Source: Planctomycetaceae bacterium (GTDB taxonomy: Bacteria; Planctomycetota; Planctomycetia; Pirellulales; Pirellulaceae). Taken from it: 50,651 bases of DNA. The notes beneath the pieces are model-generated. The model was given only the letters and a program-made list of their open reading frames with translations. It made no database searches and was not told the DNA's origin. The first letter of the stretch is position 1. Each line of letters opens with the position of its first letter. Made by a program: the position numbers and the translations under genes. The stretch spans positions 1 to 50,651 of the forward strand of contig PKCN01000398.1 of the NCBI GenBank assembly GCA_002862205.1. The letters run 5' to 3'. Shown here in pieces: positions 1,741-49,356 of this stretch.

Positions 1741-1788
1741 GTGAAAACCGTGCTACGTGAAAACCGTGCCAAGTGAAGAACGCTTCAC
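1741..1788. repeat. Short tandem array, 16-bp unit x3
   Basis: Units begin GTGAAAACCGTGCTAC (1741), GTGAAAACCGTGCCAA (1757) and a diverged GTGAAGAACGCTTCAC (1773). The array is intergenic, 38 bases after the DUF2203 stop. Confidence 0.85.
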
Positions 1789-1914
1789 ACCAGACTCGGC
1801 CCCCGCGATGGCTTCGCACTCACGGATACATTTCATCAGTCGACAAGGCCCGGGCTGAGAAGCGGGCTGAGATTTTTCGCCGTCACAAGACAGTTGGAAT
1901 TGGTACCGCTGTGG

Positions 1915-1962
1915 CCAGAGCGTCTCAGGGCCAGAGCGTCTCAGAGCCAGAGCATCTCAGGA
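1915..1962. repeat. Short tandem array, 16-bp unit x3
   Basis: Units CCAGAGCGTCTCAGGG, CCAGAGCGTCTCAGAG and CCAGAGCATCTCAGGA lie head to tail. The period matches the array at 1741 but the sequence is unrelated. A 12-bp pair (CGGGCTGAGAAG, then CGGGCTGAGATT) lies just before it at 1851-1874. All are in the convergent spacer before the dehydrogenase gene. Confidence 0.9.
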
Positions 1963-2003
1963 CTTACCAGCCAATTCAGCCTTTGGCAGTCAATTCAGCG
2001 GCT

Positions 2004-3152
2004 TCACTTGATCAAGTGCTTGGGGAAGTCACGGGTCCTCTCACAGGCCAACTGTTCCATGACTTGTTGGACTTGGCGTTTGAGCATCGTGATCGTGTGA
2101 TGCCCTCCATTCTTTCCCAAGGCACCCACGCCGTACATGAACGAGCGTCCCATGAAACAGAACTTGGCACCGCTCGCCAGTGCGTTGGCAATGTCAGGTC
2201 CTGATCTCAAACCGCTGTCGATCATCAGGGTCGTTTGATCTCCAAACTTCTTTGCCAATTCGGTGAGCGGTTGGATGGTCGATTGACCATTATCCAATTG
2301 TCGTCCCCCGTGATTGGATGCGATGATTCCATCGACTCCGAGCCCGATTGCCTTCTCAGCATCTTCTTCGTTGACGATCCCTTTGACGACAAGTTTACCT
2401 TTCCATCGTTCCCGAATCGCCTCAATTTTTTTGGCATTGAGTCTGCCGGAGAACGTCTTATTCATGAAGAGCCCAAGATGCTTCATGCTGAGCCCCTTGG
2501 GAATGTAAGGTTTCATGGTTTTGAACTCGGGCACACCGGCGGCGAGTTGCCCAAGGCACCAGGCAGGCCGCGTCGTCATCTGGGCGATATTCCGCAGCGT
2601 CATTTTGGGAGGAATTGAAAGCCCGTTGCGAATCTCTTTGGGGCGCCAGGCAAAAGTGGGTGTATCGGCCAGAATCACCAGCACCTGACATCCTGCCGCG
2701 GCAGCACGATCGAGAAGTTTGTCCCGCAGTTCATCCTCAACCGGATGGTAGAGTTGAAACCAGAAATTTCCTTCGGTGATTTCAGACACGGTTTCGATAC
2801 TGGCAGTCGCCACCGTACTGAGGATGAATGGCACATTTTCAGCGAATGCGGCCTGCGCCAAGTATTCGGTCGCTTTCGGCCACATCATTCCCTGCAACCC
2901 GATGGGCGAGATTCCGAACGGTGCACCTCTGGTTTGACCGAACAACTCGGTTTCAAGATTGGACCCGGCGTAGTCGCGCAAATAATACGGACGCAATTGA
3001 ATCTGACGAATTTCATCCGTATTTCGCCGCAAATTCACTTCGGAAAAACAGCCGCCTTCGAGATACTCAAATGCAAAGCGAGGCATCCGTTGTCTAGCTC
3101 GTTCCCGGAGATGCTCAATCGAAGGATACCGGGAGTCAAAGTAATCTGTCAT
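2004..3152 (-). CDS. FMN-dependent alpha-hydroxy-acid dehydrogenase (L-lactate dehydrogenase / glycolate oxidase family)
   Basis: A 382-residue TIM-barrel flavoprotein of the family that oxidises L-2-hydroxy acids such as lactate, glycolate or mandelate to 2-oxo acids. Visible signatures are FAFEYLEGG near the N-terminus, PFGISPIGLQGMMWP for FMN binding, the FMN lysine in LVVKGI (Lys257), the catalytic SNHGGRQLD (His281, Arg284) and MIDSGLRSG for phosphate binding. Length is normal (about 350-390). No signal peptide or membrane anchor is obvious, but these enzymes are often membrane-associated. The physiological substrate cannot be fixed; L-lactate is the default guess. It lies upstream of a convergent spacer full of repeats and has no obvious operon partner; the flavodoxin upstream is on the same strand but almost 400 bases away. 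Confidence 0.9.
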   Translation of the reverse strand: MTDYFDSRYPSIEHLRERARQRMPRFAFEYLEGGCFSEVNLRRNTDEIRQIQLRPYYLRDYAGSNLETELFGQTRGAPFGISPIGLQGMMWPKATEYLAQAAFAENVPFILSTVATASIETVSEITEGNFWFQLYHPVEDELRDKLLDRAAAAGCQVLVILADTPTFAWRPKEIRNGLSIPPKMTLRNIAQMTTRPAWCLGQLAAGVPEFKTMKPYIPKGLSMKHLGLFMNKTFSGRLNAKKIEAIRERWKGKLVVKGIVNEEDAEKAIGLGVDGIIASNHGGRQLDNGQSTIQPLTELAKKFGDQTTLMIDSGLRSGPDIANALASGAKFCFMGRSFMYGVGALGKNGGHHTITMLKRQVQQVMEQLACERTRDFPKHLIK

Positions 3153-3541
3153 GAGGTATTTTTTTCAGGATTCATGTGGGGCCAAGCTATCCAATCACTG
3201 GCCGATTCTGGAGCTTCCATGGTATCCCGCGTGGGTAAAAAACGCCACCACTGCAGCATTGACCACCGATACGTGCGCAGCCGGGCTCGGGTCCTGAAAT
3301 CGGGTCCTGAAAACTGGATCTCAAGTGTGAACTCCTCCTCAATCATCTTGGCAGCCAAGAACTGCGGTGCAGAAATCTCCGCAGGACTTAGGCGGTCCGC
3401 CTGAAACTTGCCGCAATCGCCCGGTCATGCCCGGTCATGGCCGATGGCCGATGGCCGATGGCCGATGGCCGATGACGTTTTCCGTCAGAGTCCTAACTGT
3501 GGTGATTGAAAATTCTGGATATCGGCGTTGCCGTGGCCAAG
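3153..3541. repeat. Spacer with heptamer array (GGCCGAT x5) and two direct-repeat pairs
   Basis: Between the flavodoxin and dehydrogenase genes, both minus strand. It holds CGGGTCCTGAAAT repeated at 3288 and 3301 (13-bp period), a 10-bp pair CCGGTCATGC / CCGGTCATGG at 3421-3440, and immediately after it five perfect copies of GGCCGAT at 3439-3473. No gene is apparent in the rest. Confidence 0.9.
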
Positions 3542-4081: not shown

Positions 4082-4479
4082 TGTGAGCCTCGCATCAAAG
4101 TAAGAGCGAGCCACAGCCATCAACCAGAGCGATCAATCAGCGTGTACTCGCATTTTCATTGCGCCTAGCTACACACTCCTCGCGGGACGACCAGCCATTT
4201 TGTTAACCGTTAGCAGTGGTGTTTGTCAAGCTTGCTTACCCCAACAAGGTGGGTAGGACTTGGCTGGTGGCGCAGGTCGTTTCTGGCGATTTTCGACAGC
4301 AGACCGCTGTAGCGCCCACGCTGGTCGTGGGCAAAAGCGACCGCGGCTTGGGCTGAACCGTTTTTTAATTTTGAATCAGCCAACTGTTTGAGTTGGGTTT
4401 CGCCGTTAAAATCAGAAGATCCGGTCCGGCAACCGACGCCGTTCAGGCTCCACGCACGCCAGCAAGTAGACAGTCGCCC

Positions 4480-5940: not shown

Positions 5941-6682
5941 GAAGGCAAACAAAACGCCAATCATAGAAAACGTTACTCAGGCAGAGAATCTCGAGCTTGC
6001 GTTCGCGTTGGCCAGTGCACGAGAACCCTCCTATTTCTCCCCGCTCGCCAAGTCCCCCCATGCCTCCACGAGTGCAGCACTGCGAGTTGCCCGCGATGAC
6101 GACACGCTGAGGAACTGGGCCCATGAAGTGTTTGTCCGTGGCTTGGCGTCCCATGCAGGAACTGACCGTGGGCTCCGTTTCGATACTTCTTGGCGAGTTG
6201 GCATCGAGACGAGATCCGCGTTGGTCTCCTCGACGGTGCTTCAAAGGCCTACGGTGCTTCAAAGGCCTAAGGTGCTTCAAAGCAGCACTATGTTTGCGGG
6301 TCTCGGCGTGAAGCCTTTGCTCATGAGCCAATCGCCCCATGATCGTCTCGCTGTGTGAAGGGTCAGCAGGACGACAGTGAAACTGCTACTCAAATAACAC
6401 TCAATTCGTTGTCATGGCGACGCGCAGGCAGTTAACACGCTGCAGAGAAGTTCGTAGGATATGGCGATGGTGTGCGGGAGGTTCTGTGACGCGGATGAAA
6501 TTCTGCATGCCCACTCGTTTTTGATCGCTGATCATGAAGGCATTCTGTTGACCGCTACGGGCCAACGCTCAGGTCGAGAAGCTCTGCCGCACAATGCAAG
6601 ACCGCAAATGCAAGCATTGTGTTTTGAAATGATTGCGGTCAGCTGATCCCGACCTTCGTCCTTTCAACCCAACGAAAGCATC
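5941..6682. other. 742-bp spacer with one tandem array; no gene supported
   Basis: Between the cytoplasmic sulfatase and the M13 peptidase. Overlapping open frames on both strands have shuffled-looking composition and no domain features. The only clear structure is the 18-bp array at 6233-6286. The M13 promoter should be near 6560-6660, but no confident -35/-10 pair was seen. Confidence 0.5.
6233..6286. repeat. Short tandem array, 18-bp unit x3
   Basis: Two perfect copies of ACGGTGCTTCAAAGGCCT (6233, 6251) are followed by a third that keeps AGGTGCTTCAAAG and then diverges (6269). Intergenic. Confidence 0.9.
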
Positions 6683-11513: not shown

Positions 11514-11720
11514 ATGAACGCCGTCAACTGCGAACAACAACCACATTAGGGTCTCTGCCTGAGTGTTTCACTGGCTGGCTGGCAGCTCACGAGGCCTCGT
11601 GTTGCAAACAGTCACGATGATCTTCTATCCGTTTCATGAACGATGCACCAGAGAACAAACGACGCGAGGCCCGATAGCAACCACGATCTTCAACGGCAGC
11701 GATAGCTCGCCCCTTGAACC

Positions 11721-11795
11721 AGTACAGCCTGCTGCAGTACACCCTGCTGCAGTACACCCTGCTGCAGTACACCCTGCTGCAGTAAATTCTGCTAC
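11721..11795. repeat. Short tandem array, 15-bp unit x5
   Basis: Unit AGTACACCCTGCTGC. Copy 1 has one change (AGTACAGCCTGCTGC), copies 2-4 are identical and copy 5 is diverged (AGTAAATTCTGCTAC). Intergenic. Each unit junction contains the palindrome CTGCAG. Confidence 0.95.
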
Positions 11796-12097: not shown

Positions 12098-12161
12098 GCA
12101 TGCACTGACCGATACCAGTGCGTGCACTGCCAGATACCATTGCGTGCACTGACAGACGGGG
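12098..12161. repeat. Short tandem array, 22-bp unit x3, upstream of the MoxR operon
   Basis: Three imperfect copies sharing GCRTGCACTGMC and GATACCA start at 12098, 12120 and 12142; the third is truncated after GACAGACGGG. The array ends about 65 bases before the MoxR start codon, so it sits in the likely promoter or leader of that operon. Confidence 0.85.
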
Positions 12162-13251: not shown

Positions 13252-14703
13252 TTGGCCGCCACACCTCAAAGCGACACGAAACGAAAGCACAGGCTGACCA
13301 AGCTTGGATTCCACTTTCTGTTCGTTGGTGCATTTGCAATGTTTGGCGGTGCCTGGCGCAGTTCCAACCTGTTGCTGATTCTTGCCGCCTTGGTCTTTGG
13401 TGCTTTGCTGATGCAGTGGCGATGGTCACGCAAATCAGCCGAGAGTGTCAGCATCCGAAGAAGATTTCCACGGGAAGCCTTTGCGGGGCAACCGTTCAGG
13501 GTCCGATACCGATTCACCAACCTCAGTCGGTTGCTTGCCGTTTGGACCTTGAGGGTTGAAGACGAAATCGAATCGTTGGATGGAACCGCAAAGAGTGTTG
13601 CAATCAGTGGGGTGGGTCGCTTGAGCCCCCAACAGACCCTGATCAGTTACTGCGATTGTTTGTTCACAAAGCGAGGGCGTTATCGCTTCGGTCCGATCGC
13701 TCTGATGACCACCTTTCCTTTTTCGCTCTTCAGTTCGCGCCAGTACAGCGAGCAGACCAATGAATTGCACGTGTTTCCTTCGTTGCTGAAACTTCGCAAC
13801 CGTTGGCAGACACGTCTTGCAAGCCGGAGCGGTGGTGAATCAACGACCGCAAGGCAAAGCGGATCTGTCGAGGGGGATTTCTTTGGGTTGCGTGAATGGC
13901 AAACCGGCGATAGCCGGAAATGGATACACTGGCGTACCACGGCTAGACTGGGTGAGCCCGCGGTGCGTCAATTTGAACAGCAACGCCGATTCGACACGTG
14001 CATTGTGGTTGACGCATTCTGTACGGACGAGGAACCCAATGACGAGCTGGAACTGTCAATCAGCTTGGCCGCGACTTTTCTGACGCACCTGTCATCGTCA
14101 CCCTCCAATCGAATGGTTCTTGCATTTGCCGGTACTGAATCAGGCGCCGTGATTGGCGGTGGCTCAACCGCGGGAAAACGTCGCATGCTGGAGATGTTGA
14201 GTGAACTCGCCCACTCACCCCAACCCGATCTACAGTCGGCAATCCAGCAAGCGACTCAAATCGTTGGTCGCGGGCAGGACTTGCTGGTGATCAGCCCTCG
14301 GTCACTGGAACAGGCGTTGGCAGAGGTCGACGATCTACAACGCTGCCTCGCACCGTGGATGCGGACGGGAAGTTTCCGTTGGATCAACGTCAGCAGCCGA
14401 GAGGTCGAACAGTGGGTAGTTTCAGCCCGAAAGGAATCATCCCGGTCCAGCAACAACAAAACCACCGCGTCGAGCCAGAATCCCAGCGAACACAACCGCG
14501 GTCAAATCCAGGAAACGGTTGAGCCTGCATCGTCCCCGTCTGAGCCTTTGCACGCTGAAACCGCCAATACGGGAAGTTCAGATCCTGCAGCTTCCGATCC
14601 CATTCACGCCGCGGTCAGCGACTCCACTATCAAGGCGACTACCCAGTCAGCAGGCGAGTCTGGTGAAACGTTCTCTGAGACCGGGGAGAACCGTCAGCCA
14701 TGA
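13252..14703 (+). CDS. DUF58 domain membrane-associated protein
   Basis: A 483-residue partner protein of MoxR ATPases. Two hydrophobic segments lie near residues 18-55 (FHFLFVGAFAMFGGAW; LLLILAALVFGALLM). The DUF58 signature GDFFGLREWQTGDSRKWIHW is at about 208-228, followed by REFEQ-like VRQFEQQ. A von-Willebrand-A-like fold follows (CIVVDAF; MVLAFAGTESGAV; DLLVISPRSL). The last 80-90 residues are a Ser/Thr/Glu-rich tail with no fold. The TTG at 13252 is chosen because AGGAG stands six bases upstream and the frame fits the family start. It is 81 bases after moxR and overlaps the next gene by four bases (ATGA), so it is co-translated with it. Confidence 0.92.
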   Translation: MAATPQSDTKRKHRLTKLGFHFLFVGAFAMFGGAWRSSNLLLILAALVFGALLMQWRWSRKSAESVSIRRRFPREAFAGQPFRVRYRFTNLSRLLAVWTLRVEDEIESLDGTAKSVAISGVGRLSPQQTLISYCDCLFTKRGRYRFGPIALMTTFPFSLFSSRQYSEQTNELHVFPSLLKLRNRWQTRLASRSGGESTTARQSGSVEGDFFGLREWQTGDSRKWIHWRTTARLGEPAVRQFEQQRRFDTCIVVDAFCTDEEPNDELELSISLAATFLTHLSSSPSNRMVLAFAGTESGAVIGGGSTAGKRRMLEMLSELAHSPQPDLQSAIQQATQIVGRGQDLLVISPRSLEQALAEVDDLQRCLAPWMRTGSFRWINVSSREVEQWVVSARKESSRSSNNKTTASSQNPSEHNRGQIQETVEPASSPSEPLHAETANTGSSDPAASDPIHAAVSDSTIKATTQSAGESGETFSETGENRQP

Positions 14704-17321
14704 CCTCCGCCAGTCCCGAATCTTCGCTGCCGCTCCAAAACGTCAATCATCGGATTTACGAGCGACTGAAACTTTATTTTGCGATCCTGACGGGCTTGGG
14801 TGGATTGGTATTATTTCTGTGCAGTGACGGTGATTCAACGCCACTGGTAGCGATATTTTTCGCGATCTTTGGTTACATTTTTGTCGATTGGCTGCGTATC
14901 TTTTCGCTGCCCCCAGTCATTGCATACGCAGCAATGGCCGTGACGGCGGTTTACAGTACCAGCGACATCATCCTGCCACTGTTTGGTGGCAACAAGGCGG
15001 ACCAGAATAATGGCGACACGGCAATGGCTGCCGTAGCTCAACTGCTGGTTCTGGTACAAGCCATCTTGATGCTCCAAAAAAAGAACCGACGCATCTTCGA
15101 GCAACTCGGTGTGTTTTGTCTGCTTGATCTGGTAGTTGGTGCAGTTTTCGGAAATACAATCGCGTTCGGGCTTCTGATGATCCCATTGTGCGTGACGGCG
15201 GCACTCGCGTTGTCACTGCTGGCCGTGGTCTCGGCATCCGAAGGCTTGAACAACCTGGAAGGTCCCGATCCAAAAATCCCCGGCTCCAAACGCACGCCAA
15301 CGCATAGCGTTGAAAAGACCATCACGGTGACTTCGCCTGATGGCGCCAGGTCCATTGCAGCTGCCTCATCTCGCTTGCCGCTGCTGGCGATTCTCAGCGT
15401 GGGGCCGTCAGTGATCCTGCTAGCCACGGTCTTTTTCTATCTGCTCCCACGCACTGGCAATGCGGCGCGTGATTCCAGTCAAGGCAAGACATTGGTGGGT
15501 TTCAACGACCAGGTGAACCTGAAACAGATCGGAAAAATGCAACAAAACCCGGCCATTGCATTGAGAGCAAACATCACCAATCGAAAGACGGGCAAGCCTT
15601 ACAAGATCGTCGGCGACTTGTATTTTCGAGGGAAAGTTCTTGAACGCTACGAAGTGCTTCCGACTCGGCGCGGGGTGACTTCCGCCCAGTGGACCTCAAT
15701 TCCGCTTGGTCGCCTGGGAAGTGGCAAACCGCTTCCGCTCGAACCGAATCCCAGTCGACCATCCGAAACCAACTTCTATGATGTCACCGATTTTGATGTC
15801 ACGTGCAGTGCCATGCGGTCACCATCGCTGTTTTCGCCGGCACCCTACCACCGCAGCGGGTTCAATAGCGATGCCGCTCATCTCCCGGATCGTTGGACCT
15901 TGGTGCGCACGGCGCCCGGAACGCTTAGCCATCATCCGCGTCTCCGTTACAAGTTTGCCAGCCATGCCTTCAAAGATGGGTTACAAACCGAGTTGATCGC
16001 TCGCTTTGCGATTGGTGACTCAACCCAACAACCCGATCCGTCCGTCCGTGCATCCGAGCAACTCTCATTCAGCGAGCGTGAAACAGAAGATTACGTTGCC
16101 AACTTGCTCGAATATAATGTTGATGACATTCCCAGTGCTGCCGCGTTTTCCGAGCGATTTTCCGGCACAGATCAGGCCAACACTCCCAACGATTATGACC
16201 TCGCAAAATCTCTGGAACGTTATCTTGCTTCGTCACCTGACTTTTCTTACACGCTTGATCTGAGTGCGGAGTCCATCCCGGGCGTTGACCCTCTGGAACA
16301 GTTCCTGTCCTTTGACAAGCGTGGACATTGCCAGTACTTCGCTGCTGCGTTAGTCATGATGTTGCGTAGCCAGAGCATTCCCGCGCGACTGGTCGTGGGC
16401 TACAAAACGAACGAATACAACGATTTGGCGAACCAGTACGTGGCCCGACAGATGCACGCACATGCCTGGGTCGAAGCCCTGATTGATCGCAGCCAGATTG
16501 ACTCCAACCGGAATATTTACGGACAGCCCAAGTCCGCGCAATACTGGCTTCGGTTGGACCCAACCCCTTCTTCCAGCGTTACGACGAATCGTCCCAGCCG
16601 AGTCACCCAGGTGTTGGATGTGGCTCAAAACGCCTGGGAAGACTATGTGGTTGATATGGACCGAACGAGGCAGGAAACGTCTTTGATCGGTGGTGGCATC
16701 ACGCCAAAGAATAGTTCCTATGAACGCTTCGTCGCCTGGCTCAGCGGCAACATGCGAAAAATGAATGATGGGACCTTGTTGTCTTCCAATGGAAATGGCA
16801 GCAAGATTTTTTCATTACCTGCAGCGATCATCGGTTTCATCTTGACCCTGGCTGCTGTCATCCTGTTTCGTGTGCCTTTGCCAAAATGGATCAAACGCCG
16901 CATCGAAAACAAGCGTGAGCGGAAGATCATGCGACCGTCGATTGATTTCTACGCTCGCACGCTTGACCAGCTCGTGCGGCTGGGAATCACTCGCAAAGCC
17001 TCCCAGACTCCGGCAGAATTGCTCGTCGAATTCAAAACACGCATCGGGGATTCCACCGACGAAAAGCAACTGGGAACAATCGACGCAAAGCAACTGGGAA
17101 CAATCGACGAAAAACTGCATTTTCTCACCGCACAGTTCTACGTCAATCGTTTCCGCGGAGCACAAATCCCTCGCCCACCTGCCGGTTCCCATCTTGATTC
17201 CGGTGGCTGGATTGTGGATGCTCCTGCATCACGGGATTCGATTGAGCAGGCTTTGCGTGACCTGACACAAAACATCGACGAATTGGTTCTGGAACCTTCG
17301 CGCACGAAGTCTTCAACATGA
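14700..17321 (+). CDS. TgpA-like membrane transglutaminase-domain protein
   Basis: An 873-residue polytopic protein. Several membrane helices fill residues 20-190 and one more lies near 225-250 (DUF3488-like region). A large extracytoplasmic part contains the transglutaminase-like core with catalytic triad Cys544 (KRGHCQYFA), His588 (HAHAWVEA) and Asp620 (LRLDPTP). A C-terminal helix (AAIIGFILTLAAVILF) is followed by a DUF4129-like cytoplasmic tail. The start overlaps the DUF58 stop as ATGA, and its own stop overlaps cmk the same way. Family members are putative cysteine proteases or transglutaminases of the envelope, linked to MoxR/DUF58. Near the C-terminus a 24-bp in-frame duplication adds a repeat DEKQLGTI / DAKQLGTI (nt 17058-17105). 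Confidence 0.92.
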   Translation: MTSASPESSLPLQNVNHRIYERLKLYFAILTGLGGLVLFLCSDGDSTPLVAIFFAIFGYIFVDWLRIFSLPPVIAYAAMAVTAVYSTSDIILPLFGGNKADQNNGDTAMAAVAQLLVLVQAILMLQKKNRRIFEQLGVFCLLDLVVGAVFGNTIAFGLLMIPLCVTAALALSLLAVVSASEGLNNLEGPDPKIPGSKRTPTHSVEKTITVTSPDGARSIAAASSRLPLLAILSVGPSVILLATVFFYLLPRTGNAARDSSQGKTLVGFNDQVNLKQIGKMQQNPAIALRANITNRKTGKPYKIVGDLYFRGKVLERYEVLPTRRGVTSAQWTSIPLGRLGSGKPLPLEPNPSRPSETNFYDVTDFDVTCSAMRSPSLFSPAPYHRSGFNSDAAHLPDRWTLVRTAPGTLSHHPRLRYKFASHAFKDGLQTELIARFAIGDSTQQPDPSVRASEQLSFSERETEDYVANLLEYNVDDIPSAAAFSERFSGTDQANTPNDYDLAKSLERYLASSPDFSYTLDLSAESIPGVDPLEQFLSFDKRGHCQYFAAALVMMLRSQSIPARLVVGYKTNEYNDLANQYVARQMHAHAWVEALIDRSQIDSNRNIYGQPKSAQYWLRLDPTPSSSVTTNRPSRVTQVLDVAQNAWEDYVVDMDRTRQETSLIGGGITPKNSSYERFVAWLSGNMRKMNDGTLLSSNGNGSKIFSLPAAIIGFILTLAAVILFRVPLPKWIKRRIENKRERKIMRPSIDFYARTLDQLVRLGITRKASQTPAELLVEFKTRIGDSTDEKQLGTIDAKQLGTIDEKLHFLTAQFYVNRFRGAQIPRPPAGSHLDSGGWIVDAPASRDSIEQALRDLTQNIDELVLEPSRTKSST
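17058..17105 (+). repeat. In-frame 24-bp tandem duplication inside the transglutaminase gene
   Basis: Two copies differing at one base (GACGAAAAGC... and GACGCAAAGC...), with a third partial start GACGAAAAACTG. They encode DEKQLGTI and DAKQLGTI followed by DEKLHF, in the cytoplasmic tail, and keep the reading frame. Confidence 0.92.
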
Positions 17322-21106: not shown

Positions 21107-23215
21107 GTGAAGCAAGAACCCAAGCAAGACGAACCAGCAACCATCGCACCTCACCCGGTGCGATGGTTTCGATTGCGCGCAGCTATTCTGCTGATCTTGT
21201 TTCTGACCCACAACACCCTGACCACTGCGAATGCGATCGAGCGTCGTCCCGAAAAAAGCCCCCCCGCCGCTCAATTCTCCAACAACACCTCCGCGGCAGC
21301 AAATGGCAGTCCCCAGGTTCAATTGCGACGTCTGCCTGCCACGTCCGCAAAACCTACAGCAACAAGCCCATCAGCAACAAGCTCACCAGCATCAAGCCCA
21401 CCAAAATCACGCGTGCTCGAGTTACCGCGGGGCATTTTCACCGGCCCTGCGTTCCGCCCTGGGTTCCATTCCACTGCAAATGCCCCCGCCCTCGCACCCA
21501 CACAAGGGACGATGGGTAAAGCGAAGGTTGCCCTGGGAACTCCGCAACCACAAGTCACCCCGCTGGCAACGCTGCTGAGTCCCGTTCCAGTCCCCTCCGA
21601 GTCCGGAACCCTCCCTCGTCGAAATCAGCCTGGCGGGTTTGAAGTCCCTTTTTGGCTTACCCCGTCCTCGACTCGTGAAAGGCCGCCCACTGGGGCATCC
21701 TTCTCAGCGGCATCTCGCAAGGATGCAACCCAAGATCCTGCCAATGGAACTGATTTTGGCGTCACAGTTCCCACTGGGCCAAGTCCTCTCGAGCGTATCC
21801 CGTCCGGGCAGATCCAAAATCAACAACCGAGCGCGGACTGCGATACCTCAACAAGCTTCTATGACGACTTTTCTGCTACCCCTATCGACAACGCTTCGCT
21901 GTACCATGACGGGCTACGCGAGCAGTGGGTCTACGACAACCGGTACGATGTCCCGACGCAGCAACCATGGGTGGAGTGGGGACGAGTTTTCTACGGAAAC
22001 GGGATCACACCTCGTGGCAAAAACTGGTTCGGAGCCATGAACCTGGTACGGCCAGAGTTTTATGTTTATGGAGATTTTCGATCTGGGATCCTTGCGGGTC
22101 GAAACGCAGCGGGTCGATCGGACAACTGGGCCAATCGATTGAATCTGGACATGGACCTGAAAATCACAGACAGCGAGCACTTCCATGCATTCATTGGCCC
22201 GATCGAAAACGAAGGGCAATTCACGCGTTTGGAACTGATTGACGGTGATCTCCAATACCGTCAGGAAGTCGACATCACGCCATTCACTGGTTACTTCGAA
22301 GGCGACTTGGGATCCATGCTCGGCGGCCTGACCCAGCAGAGTTCTGCATTCGAGTTACCCATCACCTTGGGGCTGATTCCGTTGTTTTTCCAGAATGGAA
22401 TTTGGATGGAAGACGCCGTGACGGGCGCGGCCTTCAGCCTTCCCGCCCGTCACAGCAATCTATTGAACTGGTCCAACTACGACGCGACCTTTTTTGCAGT
22501 TTTTGACCAGTTGAACAGCCCTGCTTTTGGGAACAACAATCATGCAGCGCAAGCGTTTGGGACAGCCTGGTTCATTGAAGCCTATAAGGGTTACATTGAG
22601 ACTGGGTATGCGTATGTCCGGGATCGCAATCAGTCTGAACTCAGCTACCACAACATGACGGCAAGCTACACACGCAGATACCTTGATCGGATCAGCAATA
22701 GCGTTCGAGTAATCGTGAACACTGGCCAGGATCTGCCTGCTGCCGAACGAACGGCCGATGGTGTGCTGCTGCTTGTTGAAAACAGCTGGATTACAGCGAA
22801 TCCACTCACATTCGTCCCTTATGCGAACTTCTTTGCTGGCTGGAACCGTCCACAATCGATCGCCCGAGCGGGGATCGCGGGTGGGATTCTTCGTAACACG
22901 GGTATCAATTTTGATACGGATGGTGTCAACGGGCTGGCAACCCTCGATGCCTCTGGCAGCGATACCGCTGGCGGATCTGTCGGGCTGGATCTGCTGGGGA
23001 ATGATTTGGAGAAGCAACTTTTACTCGAAGCCTCCTACCTGACGCCTCATGGCAACAGGAATGCCGCCGTCAAGGGCGATCAGTATGCATTGGGAATGCG
23101 GTTTCAAATCCCACTCAGCAACTCCACATTATGGCGTTTTGACACGATGTACGGCTGGCGTCGCGGTTTAGAGGATGTTTATGGAACGCGGATGGAGTAT
23201 CGTTGGAAATTCTAA
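21107..23215 (+). CDS. Outer-membrane beta-barrel protein with Pro/Ser/Thr-rich N-terminal segment
   Basis: A 702-residue protein starting at GTG 21107, seven bases after the cytochrome stop. A long signal peptide (RAAILLILFLTHNTLTTANA) precedes about 190 residues rich in Pro, Ser, Thr and Ala, then a C-terminal region of about 420 residues with alternating aromatic/polar strands (EFYVYGDFRSGILAG, YIETGYAYVRDRNQ, LLLEASYLTPHG) ending in YRWKF. A terminal Phe is the recognition signal for outer-membrane barrel assembly, so an outer-membrane location is likely. It contains an in-frame 15-bp repeat at 21357-21401. No match to a named porin family is claimed. Pairing with the pentahaem cytochrome suggests a shared job in envelope redox chemistry. 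Confidence 0.75.
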   Translation: MKQEPKQDEPATIAPHPVRWFRLRAAILLILFLTHNTLTTANAIERRPEKSPPAAQFSNNTSAAANGSPQVQLRRLPATSAKPTATSPSATSSPASSPPKSRVLELPRGIFTGPAFRPGFHSTANAPALAPTQGTMGKAKVALGTPQPQVTPLATLLSPVPVPSESGTLPRRNQPGGFEVPFWLTPSSTRERPPTGASFSAASRKDATQDPANGTDFGVTVPTGPSPLERIPSGQIQNQQPSADCDTSTSFYDDFSATPIDNASLYHDGLREQWVYDNRYDVPTQQPWVEWGRVFYGNGITPRGKNWFGAMNLVRPEFYVYGDFRSGILAGRNAAGRSDNWANRLNLDMDLKITDSEHFHAFIGPIENEGQFTRLELIDGDLQYRQEVDITPFTGYFEGDLGSMLGGLTQQSSAFELPITLGLIPLFFQNGIWMEDAVTGAAFSLPARHSNLLNWSNYDATFFAVFDQLNSPAFGNNNHAAQAFGTAWFIEAYKGYIETGYAYVRDRNQSELSYHNMTASYTRRYLDRISNSVRVIVNTGQDLPAAERTADGVLLLVENSWITANPLTFVPYANFFAGWNRPQSIARAGIAGGILRNTGINFDTDGVNGLATLDASGSDTAGGSVGLDLLGNDLEKQLLLEASYLTPHGNRNAAVKGDQYALGMRFQIPLSNSTLWRFDTMYGWRRGLEDVYGTRMEYRWKF
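21357..21401 (+). repeat. In-frame 15-bp tandem array x3 in the beta-barrel gene
   Basis: CAGCAACAAGCCCAT, CAGCAACAAGCTCAC and CAGCATCAAGCCCAC lie head to tail and encode a repetitive Ala-Thr-Ser-Pro stretch of the linker. Unit length is a multiple of three, as in the other intragenic arrays. Confidence 0.85.
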
Positions 23216-24620: not shown

Positions 24621-24710
24621 CGAGGCTCAGCATCGCTGCAGCAGCAAGCACGAGGCTCAGCATCGCTGCAGCAGCAAGCAAGGGGCTCAGCATTCCTGTA
24701 GCAGCAAGCA
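24621..24710. repeat. Short tandem array, 30-bp unit x3
   Basis: Two perfect copies beginning CGAGGCTCAGCATCGCTGCA (24621, 24651) and a third with five changes beginning AGGGGCTCAGCATTCCTGTA (24681). The array is in the convergent spacer between the channel gene and apt, 25 bases after the channel stop. Confidence 0.95.
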
Positions 24711-24828
24711 AGGGGTTGTTTGGATGCCTGGCAAACCGCGCACGCCAAACGGTCACTGCAGCACGCCTGTGGCTGCGACAAGCTCGCAGAAACCTTCCGG
24801 ACTGGCAACGCTCATTGCTTCAACGAGC

Positions 24829-24879
24829 GATGCCTCACAGGATGCGATGCCTGACAGGATGCGATGGGCGACAGGAGGA
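24829..24879. repeat. Short tandem array, 17-bp unit x3
   Basis: GATGCCTCACAGGATGC, GATGCCTGACAGGATGC and a diverged GATGGGCGACAGGAGGA. It ends 20 bases before the apt stop codon. Together with the 24621 array it fills much of this 304-bp spacer; nothing else is recognisable there. Confidence 0.85.
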
Positions 24880-30911: not shown

Positions 30912-30963
30912 CAGTGTTTGCAGTCAGTGTTTGCAGCCAGTTCCTGCAATCAGTGCTGGCCGT
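30912..30963. repeat. Short tandem array, 13-bp unit x4
   Basis: CAGTGTTTGCAGT, CAGTGTTTGCAGC, CAGTTCCTGCAAT and CAGTGCTGGCCGT lie head to tail in the convergent spacer between the sulfatase and PQQ-propeller genes. It shares period and the CAGTG start with the array at 39744. Confidence 0.85.
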
Positions 30964-33488: not shown

Positions 33489-33646
33489 GATGTCCCGTCC
33501 TTGAAACCCATCTCCCACATGATCATGCAATCCAACGATCGCGTGTTCCGCCAACGCTTCCAACGCCGCTGTCAACCAGAACTCTCTTCCCACCCGTCAT
33601 GCCTGCACGTTGCAACCAGCCCGTACGGTGGGGCGACAAGCCATGA

Positions 33647-39626: not shown

Positions 39627-39728
39627 GCCGTTACTGTCTGAATGCCGTTACTGTCTGAAAGCCGTTGCTGTCTGAATGCCGTTGCTGTCTGAATGCCGTT
39701 GCTGCCTGAAAGCCGTTGCTGCGTGTAA
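39627..39728. repeat. Short tandem array, 17-bp unit x6
   Basis: Unit GCCGTTGCTGTCTGAAT. Copies at 39627, 39644, 39661, 39678, 39695 and 39712 differ at a few positions (TTACTG versus TTGCTG; GAAT versus GAAA), with the last one diverged at its end. This is the longest array in the window. Confidence 0.95.
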
Positions 39729-39743: not shown

Positions 39744-39795
39744 CAGTGCTTGAAATCAGTGCTTGAAATCAGTGCTTGAAATCAGTGCTTGAAAT
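39744..39795. repeat. Short tandem array, 13-bp unit x4
   Basis: Four perfect copies of CAGTGCTTGAAAT, followed by a broken CAGCGTGCCC. It lies 16 bases after the 17-bp array. Confidence 0.97.
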
Positions 39796-39855
39796 CAGCG
39801 TGCCCACGTCACTGCCCGCCATGGGACGAGCATTTCGAGGTGCCTACCACCAACC

Positions 39856-39912
39856 TGTCCTGCACCTTGCCTCTTGTCCTGCACCTTGCCTCTTGTCCTG
39901 CACCTTGACTCT
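39856..39912. repeat. Short tandem array, 19-bp unit x3
   Basis: TGTCCTGCACCTTGCCTCT occurs twice perfectly, then once with one change (ACTCT for CCTCT), followed by a decayed TGCCGTGCCCT. Confidence 0.95.
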
Positions 39913-40104
39913 TGCCGTGCCCTCAGACTGTTGTTGGACCTCTAGTATAACCACGTCAGCTCAAATTGACTGCACTCACACCCCCATCAAGATGTTTCCA
40001 CCTCGGATCTTGCTTTTTTCATCCCCCGATTTGGTAGCCTTGCTGGCGGTCAGGCGGATATTCGATACAGCCGCCCCAGCCCCTTCACCGTTGCCAGAAC
40101 CCGC

Positions 40105-42882: not shown

Positions 42883-42977
42883 GCTTTCGGGCGAGAATCG
42901 AGCTTTCGGGCGAGAATCGAGCTTTCGGGTGAGAATCGAGCTTTCGGGTGAGAATCGAGCTTTCAGGCGAGAATCGA
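42883..42977. repeat. Short tandem array, 19-bp unit x5
   Basis: Unit GCTTTCGGGCGAGAATCGA. Copies 1-2 are identical, 3-4 share one C-to-T change and copy 5 carries G-to-A. It lies in the 716-bp spacer between the small hypothetical and floA. The overlapping frames on both strands that spell the repeat are not considered genes. The rest of this spacer (42978-43424) holds nothing I can identify. Confidence 0.95.
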
Positions 42978-43424
42978 GGTTGGGGTACTGGCACTGCGGC
43001 ATTAGGCATCACAAACGGAACGGTCAGCGAACAGAGCCCATGTCGCTCGGCAGTCCCGCAATGGCTCGAATGACCAACGCCGCTTTCATCGAATTGCCTG
43101 TGTTTTTGAATAGAAATGGCGATTCCACGGTCGTCGAAGGCCCCGGCGATTTGGACTGCTGACGATCTGTCTTGGCCTTCGGCACGAGCCAACCGATTGA
43201 GAGCCAGCCGTGCCTCTGCCGAGGCCAAAATCGAGCCCAACCCCATTCCGATGACCACATTCGGCCCCAAATTGTGTTGCCAGCAGACGCTAGAAACGAT
43301 CTCAGATGGGCGTCAGGGGCGTCCATTGTTCCCCCCCGCTTAACGGCCAGCCTTGCAGCAGCCGTCAGCACCCTTATCATTTGGGGCAAGGACTCCGGCA
43401 CGTGTGTATTTCAAAGGCCCCCCA

Positions 43425-44480: not shown

Positions 44481-44510
44481 TTCGTACAACCGTGGTTCGT
44501 ACAACCGTGG
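44481..44510. repeat. 15-bp direct repeat x2 immediately after floA
   Basis: TTCGTACAACCGTGG is repeated exactly at 44481 and 44496, starting at the base after the floA stop. The last codons of floA (GGTTCGTAA) already contain the first bases of the unit. The rest of the 259-bp spacer shows no gene. Confidence 0.8.
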
Positions 44511-45576: not shown

Positions 45577-45681
45577 GCGACGCGGACCAATTCAAAACGT
45601 TGACCGTCTCTGCCCCCTGCTACCTTCAAAGCCTCGCTCGACGTGGAAGTGACGCCGGAACTTGCCCCAAAGTCTCGCCTC

Positions 45682-45764
45682 CACCCAGCAGCCCTGCACC
45701 CAGCAGCCCAGCAGCCCTGCACCCAGCAGCCCTGCACCCAGCAGCCCTGCACCCAAGCCAACCT
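45682..45764. repeat. Short tandem array, 15-bp unit, about 5 copies
   Basis: Unit CACCCAGCAGCCCTG at 45682, 45720 and 45735, with a shortened copy plus a 9-base fragment between the first and second and a decayed last copy CACCCAAGCCAACCT. It is in the convergent spacer between the hydrolase and GspE-like genes. Confidence 0.92.
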
Positions 45765-45884: not shown

Positions 45885-47141
45885 TCAACGCTTGCCGAGC
45901 ACACGATAGACCTCGGCAGCATCTGTCACCCCACGCTGCACATAAGATGCAGCCATGTCATGCAGATCAACGGCTCCCTGTTCGCGTGCAGCCGTTCTCA
46001 TTTTCTGAATTGACTCGCCCGCTTGCAGTGTATCCGCGAGGGCTTCCCCCACAGGGTCTCGGGTATCCAACCGTACAATCTGCGAGATCGCGACTCTTCC
46101 TTGATAGCCTGTTCCCGTGCAATCGGCACAGCCATCACTGGTCGCGTGCACGGTCGCCTGTCGGGCTCGTACGCTGCTGCTGTGGGTTTGATCGCTGCTG
46201 CTGTGGGTTTGATCGGCGTGACAGGTTTTGCAGATTCTTCTCAGGAGACGTTGATTGATCACTGCTCTCACGCCACTACGAACCAGATGGTGTGGGACCC
46301 CCAACTGTGTGAGTCTTCGCAGCGCGGAGGCAACGTCGGTGCTATGCAGCGACGAAAAGATGAGGTGTCCCGTCAGCGAAGCTTGCACCGCAGCCTCGGC
46401 TGTTTCTGGATCACGAATTTCACTCACCAGCAGCACTTCGCTATCCTGCCGGACCGCACTCTTCAGTGCGCTGGCAAGCGTCAAACCACTGACAGGATCC
46501 AGTTCGCTTTGGCTGATCGATTCCACAAGCGTTTCGACGGGATCCTCGATGGTCATCACGCTTCGCCGGGGCTTGCCTGCTGCGATCTCACGTAACAGCG
46601 CATACATTGTGGTGGTCTTTCCGCTTCCCGCAGGGCCAGAAAGCAAAACAAGCCCATTGGTCTGCTCACATAACGTGACAAGCGTCTTCTGCTGCTCATC
46701 ATCGAGCCCCAACGACGACACCGTCTCAAAAGCTCCTTGCTGCCGCAGAATCCGCACCACTCCTCGCGGCCCATGGACGGTGGGAAATACACCAAGCCGC
46801 ATCGAGATGGTCCCCTGAGTGCGTTTCTCATCCTCTGTCCCACTCCATGCCAACCGTCCTTCCATGGGCGTTCCACTACGATAAGTGGGCAGCCCCGCCA
46901 ACACCATCATTCGCGAGACAGGATCGCCCGAACCACCCCCGGGCAACGTCCCCCTGACCGAAAGCACGCCATCTACCCGGAACAGAATTTCCCAACCTGC
47001 AGCGCGTGGCTGCAGATGGATGTCGGACGCACCACAATCAATCGCCAGCGTTAGCACGGCGTTGACCGCATCAACGGCAAAATGTTCGTCCTTGGGGTTC
47101 AGTTCTGGAAGGTTAAGCCGAGTTTCCAAGTGGGACGTCAT
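45885..47141 (-). CDS. GspE/PilB-family secretion or pilus ATPase
   Basis: A 418-residue ATPase starting at ATG 47139-47141 with GAGGAAG upstream. SDIHLQPRAAGWEILFRVDG opens the N2 domain; Walker A GPAGSGKTTTMYALL, Asp box (MTIEDPVE), the Walker-B-region VLLVSEIRDPETAEAAVQ and the His box LIFSSLHSTD follow. A zinc-binding CxxC (CKTC) pair and second CADC are separated by about 35 residues. The usual N-terminal N1/MshEN domain is missing, so it is a short form. An in-frame 21-bp duplication between the cysteine pairs adds DQTHSSS twice. No other type II or type IV pilus genes lie in the window, so the complex it serves is unknown. Confidence 0.93.
   Translation of the reverse strand: MTSHLETRLNLPELNPKDEHFAVDAVNAVLTLAIDCGASDIHLQPRAAGWEILFRVDGVLSVRGTLPGGGSGDPVSRMMVLAGLPTYRSGTPMEGRLAWSGTEDEKRTQGTISMRLGVFPTVHGPRGVVRILRQQGAFETVSSLGLDDEQQKTLVTLCEQTNGLVLLSGPAGSGKTTTMYALLREIAAGKPRRSVMTIEDPVETLVESISQSELDPVSGLTLASALKSAVRQDSEVLLVSEIRDPETAEAAVQASLTGHLIFSSLHSTDVASALRRLTQLGVPHHLVRSGVRAVINQRLLRRICKTCHADQTHSSSDQTHSSSVRARQATVHATSDGCADCTGTGYQGRVAISQIVRLDTRDPVGEALADTLQAGESIQKMRTAAREQGAVDLHDMAASYVQRGVTDAAEVYRVLGKR
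46173..46214 (-). repeat. In-frame 21-bp tandem duplication inside the GspE-like gene
   Basis: Two perfect copies of a 21-bp unit (GCTGCTGCTGTGGGTTTGAT plus C on the plus strand) encode DQTHSSS twice on the minus strand, in the loop between the two zinc-binding cysteine pairs. The frame is kept. Confidence 0.96.
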
Positions 47142-47450
47142 GCACTTCTTCCTCTCGGGCTTCCGGTTGAAAGCCTCCAACAAACCGTAGCCAGCATCAC
47201 AATGATCTCCTGACCTTTGGCGTTACTTTAACGGATTCACTCGTGCACGCCCTTGGCACGCTGCAGATTCGCGTCAGGAAAGGTGCCGATCTACGTCATT
47301 GAATGCTCGCTCATGAGCGAAACAAAAGGTTTTCCAGTCTTCAACTTAGGGGATCCCAGTTTGACCCCGTGCATCCAAACCAGGTCCCATTGCCCGCAGC
47401 AGTGACCATCCCTAATCCTCCGGCATGGCTTGTCGTCTCACCTGACGCAC

Positions 47451-47486
47451 AAAAAAACCCGACTCGAATCAACCTTCGAGTCGGGT
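47451..47486 (-). terminator. Strong intrinsic terminator
   Basis: On the minus strand ACCCGACTCGAA pairs with TTCGAGTCGGGT (12-bp perfect stem) around a 6-base loop, followed by seven T residues (47457-47451). It lies 36 bases after the stop of the Lys-rich exported protein. On the plus strand the run of A precedes the hairpin, so it works in the minus direction. Confidence 0.95.
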
Positions 47487-47521
47487 CATGGATAGGTTTT
47501 CAAGCTGCCTGCTGGGCAAAC

Positions 47522-48079
47522 TTACTCTGCTGCTGGAGCGGGCTTTTTCTTTTCTGATTGATCACCTTTGCCTTGGCCGCCTTTTTTCTTGCCTTTTTTG
47601 GTGTTAGTGAACCGCTTCATCCGGGCAGGAAGTTTGGCTTTTTGATCATCATCAAGCAAAGCCACCACTGACTTGTGAAACTCCATTCGAACTTCGTTGC
47701 AAACTTTCAGAGCCTTGGCGTGCGCTTCGCTGAAACCAGCTTCTTTGTTGATCGCCTCTACCAACTCAGCACCTTTCTTCTCTGAATCCTGCATAGCTTT
47801 GAAAACTTCCTGACGCTTTTTCTGCAGTTCGCTGGTAATGCCCGCGTCATCTTTGATCTTTTTCATTTTCGCAGTAACGTCTTTGCCAAGCTCTTTTACC
47901 TTGGCAACCTGCTCATCAGTGAGCCCTACATCTTGCAGTTGCTTCAATAGCTGCCCGCCCGCATTGTATTGGCCCTTGTTTCCTTTTTTCTTTTTCTTCT
48001 CTTTCTCATCATCCGCTGCGAACGCTGGAATGGTGATCAATGCCGCCAAAGCAAGCAGGCCAAACACTTTGAAATTCAT
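47522..48079 (-). CDS. Lys-rich exported helical protein (Spy/CpxP-like, uncertain)
   Basis: A 185-residue protein starting at ATG 48077-48079 with a clean signal peptide (MNFKVFGLLALAALITIPAFA-AD). The mature part begins with a Lys/Glu tract (DDEKEKKKKKGNKGQ), then LTDEQVAKVKELGKDVTAKMKKI and LLDDDQKAKLPARMKR, helical segments that recall the LTxxQ repeats of Spy/CpxP chaperones, and it ends in a basic GKKKGGQGKGDQSEKKK tail. The family assignment is a resemblance only. It is a single-gene unit with a very strong terminator, which suggests it can be highly expressed. Confidence 0.75.
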   Translation of the reverse strand: MNFKVFGLLALAALITIPAFAADDEKEKKKKKGNKGQYNAGGQLLKQLQDVGLTDEQVAKVKELGKDVTAKMKKIKDDAGITSELQKKRQEVFKAMQDSEKKGAELVEAINKEAGFSEAHAKALKVCNEVRMEFHKSVVALLDDDQKAKLPARMKRFTNTKKGKKKGGQGKGDQSEKKKPAPAAE

Positions 48080-48475
48080 AAAAGTCTCGTCTATGTAATG
48101 GAGTTGAGTATTCGCGTTCCAATGAGTGAGGCCGCGACGATCCAAGAGTGTAATCACTCATCAAACCGATCGTCCACCATTGCCATGCGATTTCTCGTTT
48201 CGGTCATGACGGTTTGTCCGTTTGTACGCCCTACAGATCGATACGCGAGCTACTGCGGCGTTATCGGGGAAGTACCGGGGCGACCTGCTGCCCCCAAAAA
48301 AGCGACTCACCACTTCCCCACTTCAAAACTTCAGCTCAACCGCCTGCCAGCCAGCATGACACGAGATCACAGCTCACGAGATCACCACTCACCCCTAGCC
48401 GACGGTTCCCGCCGATTTATCGTTGCTGCAATTTGATCGTGCCAGCTGCACTCACCCCAGCCAATGTTCGTTGGC
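48080..48475. other. Spacer with a 15-bp repeat pair and a small dyad; no gene
   Basis: 396 bases between the Lys-rich protein and the SDR gene. CACGAGATCACAGCT at 48360 is followed by CACGAGATCACCACT at 48375. A perfect dyad GAGTG - TAAT - CACTC at 48146-48159 stands about 65 bases upstream of the Lys-rich protein's start and could be an operator. The promoter of that gene must be here but was not resolved. Confidence 0.5.
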
Positions 48476-49231
48476 TCAACCGAGGGTTTGACCGCCATCA
48501 ACGCTGAGCAATTGCCCCGTCGCCATGCTTGTTCCCAATGCGAAAAAGACGACGGCATCGGCGATGTCATCGGGCATCGAAGCCTTGGGTAACGGGTAAT
48601 CTGCCACCATATCTTCGATCCTGGTCCCAGGGTTCCCCTCACGAATCCAACGGCTTTCAATCGGGCCCGGACAGACGGCGTTGACACGAATCTCGGGAGC
48701 CAATGCACGAGCCAAAGATTTGGTCATGGTATTGAGTGCGGCTTTGCTGGCGCAATAGGCAACCGACGAACCACTTCCTGTAATTCCGGCGACCGAACTG
48801 ATATTCACCACCGCTCCCCCGTCACCTTCTTTTAACAGAGATGTAGCGGCCCGCGTTACAAAGAATGCTCCCTTGACATTGACGGCGAGAATGCGATCCC
48901 ACAATTCTTCTGTCATCGCATCGAGATCTGCGTGCTCGATGAAGCTGGTCGTGGCCGCATTATTCACCACCACATCGAGACGCCCAAACTGATCCTTGAT
49001 CTTACCAATCATTTGCTGCACCGACGCATCATCAGACACATCGCACTGGCTGAGCAACACCTTGGCACTGAGGGACTTCGCTTTGAGGACCGTTTCAGCA
49101 GCCTCATCGGCACTGCGTGAATAATTCACAATCACGTCAAATCCACGGGCTGCAAACTGCAACACACACGCCCGCCCGACTCCTGTGGCTGATCCGGTTA
49201 CCAATGCAACGGGTCGATCCTTGGAATTCAT
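48476..49231 (-). CDS. Short-chain dehydrogenase/reductase (FabG-like)
   Basis: A 251-residue classical SDR. ALVTGSATGVGRACVLQFA is the nucleotide-binding TGxxxGxG motif, NNAATTS the NNAG-like block, Ser in NISSVAG and the YCASK (YxxxK) catalytic pair follow, then NAVCPGPIESRW and the C-terminal GQLLSVDGG. Beta2 ends VIVNYSRSADEA; an Arg/Ser after it suggests NADP(H) preference. Similarity to FabG is general to this subfamily, and the true substrate cannot be inferred. The start has GGAGAGG upstream. It is minus strand, 166 bases after birA's end. Confidence 0.93.
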   Translation of the reverse strand: MNSKDRPVALVTGSATGVGRACVLQFAARGFDVIVNYSRSADEAAETVLKAKSLSAKVLLSQCDVSDDASVQQMIGKIKDQFGRLDVVVNNAATTSFIEHADLDAMTEELWDRILAVNVKGAFFVTRAATSLLKEGDGGAVVNISSVAGITGSGSSVAYCASKAALNTMTKSLARALAPEIRVNAVCPGPIESRWIREGNPGTRIEDMVADYPLPKASMPDDIADAVVFFALGTSMATGQLLSVDGGQTLG

Positions 49232-49308
49232 CTCAACACCTCTCCATCATTCGTTCATTGAAACGTTCTGTTTATCACGGTGTATCTTTCATCGGCAAGA
49301 CGGATTTC

Positions 49309-49356
49309 GCTCAGATTTTTGCTCAGATTTTTGCTCAGGATTTCGCTCAGGATTTC
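49309..49356. repeat. Short tandem array, 12-bp unit x4
   Basis: GCTCAGATTTTT twice, then GCTCAGGATTTC twice, so the array is a duplication of related pairs. It is intergenic between birA and the SDR gene and lies in the SDR promoter/leader region. Confidence 0.95.

What the first reader, a model, noticed from the sequence alone, without database searches (positions are those of the whole stretch)
1741..49356. Recurrent locus-specific short tandem arrays: a possible genome-wide local-duplication process
At least 20 head-to-tail arrays of 2-6 copies, units of 7-30 bp, are scattered across the window: 1741, 1915, 3288, 3439, 6233, 11721, 12098, 17058, 18147, 21357, 24621, 24829, 30912, 39627, 39744, 39856, 40783, 42883, 44481, 45682, 46173, 48360 and 49309. 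Unit sequences are mostly unrelated between loci, so this is not one repeat family. The inner copies are often identical and the outermost copies decayed, as expected if arrays grow by duplication and then erode. Most are in spacers; those inside genes (17058, 21357, 46173) have units of 24, 15 and 21 bp, all multiples of three. Ordinary bacterial DNA rarely has one such array per 2-3 kb. A replication-slippage, polymerase or repair trait of this lineage is a plausible cause.
Basis: partly seen in the sequence, partly recalled or inferred. Interest (0 to 1): 0.75.

Follow-up and report, generated by a model that had tools for sequence, protein, structure and literature searches.

The report
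Genome-wide locus-specific short tandem duplications
This planctomycete's DNA is sprinkled, mostly between genes, with many unrelated short sequences copied head-to-tail two to ten times; this looks like copying slips left to accumulate, more often than in most of the bacteria sampled here, and not like a purpose-built element.

Summary
The window comes from a Rubripirellula-like planctomycete. In 800 kb of the same genome outside the window the density is 2.24 per 10 kb, against 0.10 in 100 kb of E. coli K-12 and 1.11 pooled over 15 congeners. 89% of units are 12-24 bp; they share at most a weak motif and lie in spacers roughly by spacer length. None of the 21 was seen at the matching site in the sister genomes compared; sisters carry other arrays. 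In genes, 61 of 67 periods are multiples of three. Best reading: recurrent slippage-type duplication and unit-step expansion, filtered by selection. Ku end-joining is unlikely (0 of 37 family genomes); six repair or replication families searched gave no candidate cause. Intergenic tandem-repeat plasticity of Planctomycetota is already in print (PMC9426551). New here: density, unit size, turnover and a roughly two-fold excess over sister species. The cause remains unknown.

The parts
1735..1777 (.). tandem array, 16 bp x 2.7, spacer
   Evidence: TRF score 65; location
1913..1961 (.). tandem array, 16 bp x 3.1, spacer
   Evidence: TRF score 84; location
3287..3312 (.). tandem array, 13 bp x 2.0, spacer
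   Evidence: TRF score 52; location
3437..3474 (.). tandem array, 7 bp x 5.4, spacer
   Evidence: TRF score 76; location
6233..6282 (.). tandem array, 18 bp x 2.8, spacer
   Evidence: TRF score 93; location
11720..11784 (.). tandem array, 15 bp x 4.3, spacer
   Evidence: TRF score 123; location
12101..12156 (.). tandem array, 22 bp x 2.5, spacer
   Evidence: TRF score 91; location
17057..17113 (+). in-frame tandem array, 24 bp x 2.4, inside ORF 14700-17321; one 8-aa unit longer than five of six sister orthologues (the sixth has a 12-aa gap)
   Evidence: TRF score 107; protein alignments
21357..21403 (+). in-frame tandem array, 15 bp x 3.1, inside ORF 21107-23215
   Evidence: TRF score 73; location
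24624..24715 (.). tandem array, 30 bp x 3.1, spacer
   Evidence: TRF score 149; location
24827..24866 (.). tandem array, 17 bp x 2.4, spacer
   Evidence: TRF score 73; location
30912..30941 (.). tandem array, 13 bp x 2.3, spacer
   Evidence: TRF score 53; location
39627..39721 (.). tandem array, 17 bp x 5.6, spacer after the NAD synthase gene; no array with this unit in five sister spacers
   Evidence: TRF score 155; sister comparison
39744..39798 (.). tandem array, 13 bp x 4.2, 100% matches, same spacer
   Evidence: TRF score 110; sister comparison
39856..39914 (.). tandem array, 19 bp x 3.1, same spacer
   Evidence: TRF score 111; sister comparison
42883..42978 (.). tandem array, 19 bp x 5.1, spacer
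   Evidence: TRF score 171; location
44481..44510 (.). tandem array, 15 bp x 2.0, directly after the FloA stop codon
   Evidence: TRF score 60; ORF end
45678..45751 (.). compound tandem array (TRF period 38 x 1.9, also read as 15 or 23), spacer
   Evidence: TRF score 134; location
46172..46215 (-). in-frame tandem array, 21 bp x 2.1, inside GspE/PilB-like ATPase ORF 45885-47183
   Evidence: TRF score 88; protein alignments
48360..48392 (.). tandem array, 15 bp x 2.2, spacer
   Evidence: TRF score 52; location
49305..49358 (.). tandem array, 12 bp x 4.5, spacer
   Evidence: TRF score 66; location

Best explanation
The arrays are footprints of a diffuse, unprogrammed mutation process. (1) Inferred: a nascent strand slips back 9-25 nt, in part of the cases between short direct repeats, and copies a segment twice. 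(2) Inferred: once two copies exist, further slippage by one unit makes 3-10 copies. (3) Shown: arrays are about ten times denser in spacers than in genes, in genes nearly always keep frame, and in co-directional spacers thin out towards the downstream gene; inferred: this is selection removing harmful ones. (4) Shown for this window: none of its arrays was seen at the matching site in the sister species compared; inferred: arrays turn over faster than these species diverged. This lineage makes or tolerates more such events than most sampled relatives; why is unknown.
For: 21 arrays against 0.2 in shuffles. Genome-wide: 179 in 800 kb, 2.24 per 10 kb; E. coli 1 in 100 kb. Counts in 391 spacers of 60 bp or more follow spacer length without excess clustering (114 arrays, p 0.83). 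At most a weak motif; no excess folding of units. 121 in spacers (8.96 per 10 kb of spacer), 67 in genes (0.94 per 10 kb of gene), 12 on edges; 61 of 67 genic periods in frame. Microhomology: of 50 exact two-copy arrays with clean flanks, 15 have >=4 nt of extra repeat where blunt duplication predicts about 1. Window arrays not seen at sister sites, sisters with different arrays in some of the same spacers. In ORF 14700-17321 five of six sister proteins lack exactly one 8-aa unit. The spacer after the NAD synthase gene is 123-209 bp longer than in five sisters, and its three arrays account for 160 bp.
Against: No mutation was observed directly: no reads, no strain pairs. 28 of the 50 clean two-copy arrays have only 0-1 nt of microhomology, so slippage between direct repeats is supported for a minority only; about 3 exact duplications of 9 bp or more are expected by chance in 850 kb. 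Plain slippage does not predict the narrow unit size (89% at 12-24 bp); TRF's threshold explains part of the lower limit, not the upper one. Spacers of the sisters are largely too diverged to align, so 'absent in sister' rests on TRF and unit comparison by eye. The spacer-length test counts the arrays' own length in the spacers. Spacer length differences against sisters scatter widely.
Confidence: 0.7

Rival explanations
1. Staggered double-strand breaks are filled in and joined by Ku/LigD end-joining, which duplicates the overhang.
For: Over half of the clean two-copy arrays (28 of 50) have 0-1 nt of microhomology; the size range would suit staggered ends.
Against: Ku (PF02735) was found in 0 of 37 family genomes, own included (some of them incomplete); the hits, in 9 of 60 genomes, lie in other families of the order. 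End-joining by itself does not make arrays of 3-10 copies. LigD was not searched.
Confidence: 0.04
2. The lineage lost or altered a repeat-stabilising or repair function, raising slippage.
For: About two-fold higher density than five sisters pooled.
Against: ExoVII large subunit (window ORF 26720-27937), RecJ, PolA 5'-3' exonuclease, MutS and DnaE are all present in this genome. Presence is not activity, and only these families and Ku were searched.
Confidence: 0.15
3. The arrays are functional elements (binding-site clusters, terminators, phase-variation switches) kept by selection.
For: Convergent spacers hold more arrays per kb (23 arrays in 12.3 kb against 91 in 112 kb, p 0.0008, post hoc). 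CACAG is weakly enriched in units.
Against: No strong shared motif, no folding excess, placement by spacer length, fewer near downstream gene starts, and no array seen at the same place in sisters.
Confidence: 0.05
4. Mobile-element scars, target-site duplications or a dispersing satellite family.
For: Scattered direct repeats can be such scars.
Against: Units are mostly unrelated; 12-24 bp exceeds usual target-site duplications (recalled), and excision scars would stop at two copies, whereas half of the arrays have 2.8 or more.
Confidence: 0.03
5. Chance or assembly artefact.
For: The genome is a draft of 451 contigs.
Against: Shuffles give about 0.2 per window. Low-contig assemblies of the genus show the same kind of array (G018, 9 contigs, 2.0 per 10 kb; G003, 1 contig, 1.0 per 10 kb). 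Genic arrays keep frame.
Confidence: 0.02

Closest known systems
Intergenic tandem repeats of lake Planctomycetota linked to structural variants (PMC9426551; passages and section 10 read)
   Same: Same phylum; [quoted passage not shown]
   Different: Freshwater metagenomes with long reads showing segregating variants; the text I read gives no unit sizes, densities per genome or sister-species comparison
Mutually unrelated satellites scattered over one genome, Methanobrevibacter ruminantium (PMC6749651; passages and section 6 read)
   Same: Unrelated units scattered over the genome, read as a potential to grow satellites; the same paper lists Rhodopirellula baltica with 29 satellites, 4.06 per Mb
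   Different: Their definition needs at least four repeats, and the M. ruminantium group described has units over 30 nt. My re-implementation gives 42.5 per Mb here (34 in 800 kb) against 23.0 for their top bacterial replicon and 89 for their top archaeon, but it is not their program
Over-representation of close direct repeats in prokaryotes including Planctomycetes (PMC4060949; passages read)
   Same: Planctomycetes score 2.75 for clustered octamers (8n4g24)
   Different: Pattern scores per phylum (Actinobacteria and Cyanobacteria score 3.00), without arrays, turnover or unit-size analysis in what I read
Tandem repeat content of planctomycete genomes (PMC4807772; table passages read)
   Same: R. 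baltica 12.2 repeat bases per kb, six other planctomycetes 10-19.7, P. mikurensis 93.5, a Bacteroidetes 19.3
   Different: Method not seen; my figure for this genome is 12.2 per kb for periods 7-60, so total repeat content is not extreme by that yardstick
Variable-number tandem repeats / minisatellites of bacteria (recalled)
   Same: Unit lengths and slippage-type growth
   Different: Usually a few tens of loci per genome (recalled); here 2.24 per 10 kb over 7.77 Mb would mean well over a thousand arrays of about two or more copies (extrapolated)

Membership tests
Minisatellite / VNTR loci | head-to-tail copies of a unit of roughly 7-100 bp | tested here: met
   21 arrays in the window, 179 in 800 kb outside it
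Minisatellite / VNTR loci | copy number varies between strains of a species | not testable with these tools
   one genome per species held; no reads
Dispersed satellite family (one unit spread over the genome) | shared unit sequence between loci | tested here: not met
   among 119 spacer units only CACAG is weakly enriched, in 15 units
Replication-slippage duplications | flanking microhomology above chance | tested here: inconclusive
   15 of 50 clean two-copy arrays have >=4 nt where about 1 is expected, but 28 of 50 have 0-1 nt
Ku/LigD end-joining duplications | Ku present in the genome | tested here: not met
   0 of 37 family genomes, own included
Regulatory repeat elements (iterons, terminators) | conserved motif, structure or position | tested here: not met
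   only a weak motif, no folding excess, no array seen at the same place in sisters
Genes with selected amino-acid repeats | repeat conserved in orthologues | tested here: not met
   the two window genic arrays with several sister alignments (17057, 46172) show no matching repeat in sister proteins by eye; 21357 was aligned with one sister protein. The other 64 genic arrays of the 850 kb were not tested

The most novel reading that the evidence does not exclude
This Rubripirellula species, and perhaps others such as G018, carries a heritable replication or repair state that makes 12-24 nt back-slips and unit-step expansions more often than in sister species; the narrow unit size is the fingerprint of a specific enzyme geometry (for example a polymerase, clamp or translesion complex) rather than of generic slippage.
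Probability: 0.18. Interest if true: 0.65.

Novelty: new member of a known kind. Interest (0 to 1): 0.4.

Why it matters
If the excess over sister species is a rate difference, the genus offers a natural comparison for finding what controls 10-25 bp duplications in bacteria, a class that mismatch repair handles poorly. It also suggests that intergenic regions of these large genomes are rewritten quickly by local copying, so apparent spacer 'elements' there should not be read as regulatory without conservation. If it is only relaxed selection in large genomes, it is a useful caution and little more.

Tried and rejected
Ku end-joining: rejected, Ku in 0 of 37 family genomes. Loss of PolA 5'-3' exonuclease, ExoVII large subunit, RecJ, MutS or DnaE: not found, all present in this genome. 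A second DnaE-type polymerase as cause: present in all 11 genus genomes searched (in G020 in pieces), rich and poor alike, and in two other family genomes; G029 and G030 show one. Shared motif in units: only a weak CACAG signal. Hairpin-driven duplication: no folding excess. Outside-in decay of arrays: a first count was inflated because the right-hand flank included partial copies; the corrected count leaves a small effect. Dispersed family, mobile-element scars and artefact: see rivals.

I therefore dropped the wording 'several-fold' and lowered the probability of the novel reading from 0.22 to 0.18.

Limits: own-genome figures come from the first 20 kb of the 40 longest contigs other than the window's own (C1-C22, C24-C41), so contig starts are over-represented. 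The genome was picked because its window looked array-rich, although the window is left out of its density. Sister genomes are partly fragmented and repeats break assemblies, which would lower their counts. Gene calls are my own hexamer-scored ORFs, not an annotation. Counts leave out 2 of 202 arrays with periods over 60. In one search one of 12 array-bearing spacers had no sister comparison. In one search, 59 of 109 exact two-copy arrays were dropped for repeat-like flanks. Controls outside the phylum are few: E. coli K-12 2 x 50 kb, S. meliloti pSymB 50 kb, Rhodococcus pRHL1 50 kb.
Full report
WHAT WAS CHECKED. TRF on the window gives 21 separate arrays of score >=50. Forty 1-kb-block dinucleotide shuffles give 0.175 on average (maximum 2) and forty order-4 Markov sequences 0.25 (maximum 1).

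WHERE IT IS. The window is G000:C23:1-50651 of a 7.77 Mb draft of 451 contigs. The best named matches of its FloA gene are Rhodopirellula and Rubripirellula records, so I take it as a Rubripirellula-like member of the Pirellulaceae. Among the 20 ORFs scanned, NCBIfam models match ordinary genes such as NAD synthase, DapF, FloA, a GspE-like ATPase and a biotin ligase.

GENOME-WIDE DENSITY. In 800 kb from 40 other contigs of the same genome there are 179 arrays, 2.24 per 10 kb (95% interval 1.92-2.59); the window has 4.15 (21 against 11.3 expected, p 0.006). Congeners: G018 2.00, G020 1.71, G016 1.50, G010 1.28, G005 1.19, G017 1.14, G003 1.00, G011 0.67, G008 0.53, G001 0.40. Other genera of the family: 0.50 and 0.62; other families of the order: 0, 0.33, 0.83, 1.33. 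Controls: E. coli K-12 0.10, S. meliloti pSymB 0.40, Rhodococcus pRHL1 1.20. None of the 9 control arrays reaches 2.8 copies; 89 of 179 do here (all). Five further congeners with 20-40 kb each gave 0.5-1.0. All 15 congeners pooled: 140 arrays in 1.26 Mb, 1.11 per 10 kb.

IS IT A LINEAGE TRAIT? Including this genome, the rates of the six syntenic species differ (chi-square 30.7, 5 df, p 1.1e-5). That rests mostly on this genome: 2.24 against 1.18 per 10 kb for its five sisters pooled (p 7e-7), while the five alone differ only borderline (p 0.054) and the 15 congeners modestly (p 0.029). Named planctomycete loci L043-L112 average 1.0 per 10 kb (104 arrays in 1.04 Mb). Of 67 named loci of at least 10 kb, 4 reach 3.4-5.7 per 10 kb; of 40 own stretches, 8 reach 3 or more. 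So the kind of array is spread over the order and dense patches occur elsewhere.

ANATOMY. In 850 kb including the window there are 200 arrays of period 7-60: 121 in spacers, 67 in genes, 12 on edges. That is 8.96 per 10 kb of spacer and 0.94 per 10 kb of gene; 61 of 67 genic periods and 50 of 121 spacer periods are multiples of three. The spacer share is not clearly above one third (p 0.067). 89% of 202 arrays of any period have units of 12-24 bp, most often 15. Periods above 30 bp are rarer than in the named loci L043-L112 (8 of 202 against 19 of 104, p 7e-5). Counts per spacer fit spacer length (p 0.83). Convergent spacers carry more per kb (p 0.0008, post hoc). In 56 co-directional spacer arrays the numbers fall towards the downstream gene (16, 15, 11, 8, 6 in fifths; p 0.016 for the outer two fifths on each side).

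TURNOVER. Synteny with G017, G005, G010, G008, G020 and, for part, G012 let each of the 21 arrays be compared with at least one sister. Nineteen lie in gaps between matched stretches: no sister gap holds an array whose unit resembles the window's by eye, and several hold other arrays. The remaining two (17057, 46172) lie inside matched genes; their sister proteins show no such repeat by eye, and at 17057 five of six lack exactly eight residues, one unit. Array-bearing spacers are longer than in sisters by a median of 46 bp over 11 spacers, near the mean array excess of 57 bp; 13 array-free spacers show a median of -39 bp. The scatter is wide and no test was run on it.

MECHANISM. Exact two-copy arrays with clean flanks (50 of 109) were tested for microhomology: 28 have 0-1 nt, 15 have >=4 nt against about 1 expected for blunt duplication. 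That supports slippage between short direct repeats for a part and leaves the rest open. Ku was found in 0 of 37 family genomes, which argues against end-joining. ExoVII large subunit, RecJ, PolA exonuclease, MutS and DnaE are present in this genome. No hairpin excess and only a weak motif were found. I conclude: recurrent slippage-type duplication, expansion by unit steps, removal or tolerance by selection. Duplication, expansion and selection are inferred; the distribution and the differences from sisters are seen.

WHAT IS KNOWN. Lake Planctomycetota have many structural variants, the non-coding deletions often at intergenic tandem repeats (PMC9426551, passages and section 10). Satellites unrelated among themselves and scattered over one genome are described for M. 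ruminantium, and R. baltica is listed at 4.06 satellites per Mb (PMC6749651, passages and section 6). With my re-implementation of that definition this genome has 34 in 800 kb, 42.5 per Mb, against 23.0 for the highest bacterial replicon and 89 for the highest archaeon in their table; G020 has 4 in 58 kb, G018, G003 and G001 1 each in 100 kb, G005 1 in 59 kb, G008, G010 and G017 none in 50-96 kb, 20 stretches of other family and order genomes 3 in 400 kb, named loci 12 in 1.04 Mb, E. coli 0 in 100 kb. The comparison is not calibrated against their program, and their table shows only species with more than 20 satellites. Planctomycete tandem repeat content is tabulated in PMC4807772 (passages), where this genome's 12.2 repeat bases per kb would be ordinary. 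Close direct repeats are scored by phylum in PMC4060949 (passages). Ten literature searches listed no paper that I recognised as describing such arrays in Rubripirellula; the two papers that hold both 'Rubripirellula' and 'tandem' were not read, and the library lacks most subscription journals.

VERDICT. A real, genome-wide and strong case of a known kind of repeat. The part that could be more than ordinary is the excess over sister species with one narrow unit size; its cause is untested.

Noticed in passing
window 26720-27937: The window itself encodes the ExoVII large subunit (XseA, PF02601), one of the exonucleases recalled as stabilising tandem repeats in E. coli; two parts of the profile match in the same stretch.
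   Followed up: partly
convergent spacers of G000 (65 spacers, 12.3 kb): Arrays are about twice as dense per kb in spacers between converging genes as elsewhere.
   Followed up: partly
G000 C9:9599-12556 and C21:3179-6301: Two DnaE-type polymerase genes in all 11 genus genomes searched (in G020 in pieces) and in two other family genomes; one in G029 and G030.
   Followed up: partly
window 23354-24595: ORF with matches both to potassium-channel families (residues about 320-364) and to a segment of RNA polymerase beta' (199-318), all below the curated cut-offs; an odd combination.
   Followed up: no
window 32283-33593: Protein resembling the N-terminal part of UvrC and DEDD exonuclease fusion proteins, below family cut-offs.
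   Followed up: no
order of the window's genome: Ku is found in 9 of 23 genomes of other families of the order but in 0 of 37 of this family.
   Followed up: no
L089, 17.5 kb of another Pirellulaceae MAG: Ten arrays with periods 9-36, 5.7 per 10 kb, denser than the window.
   Followed up: no
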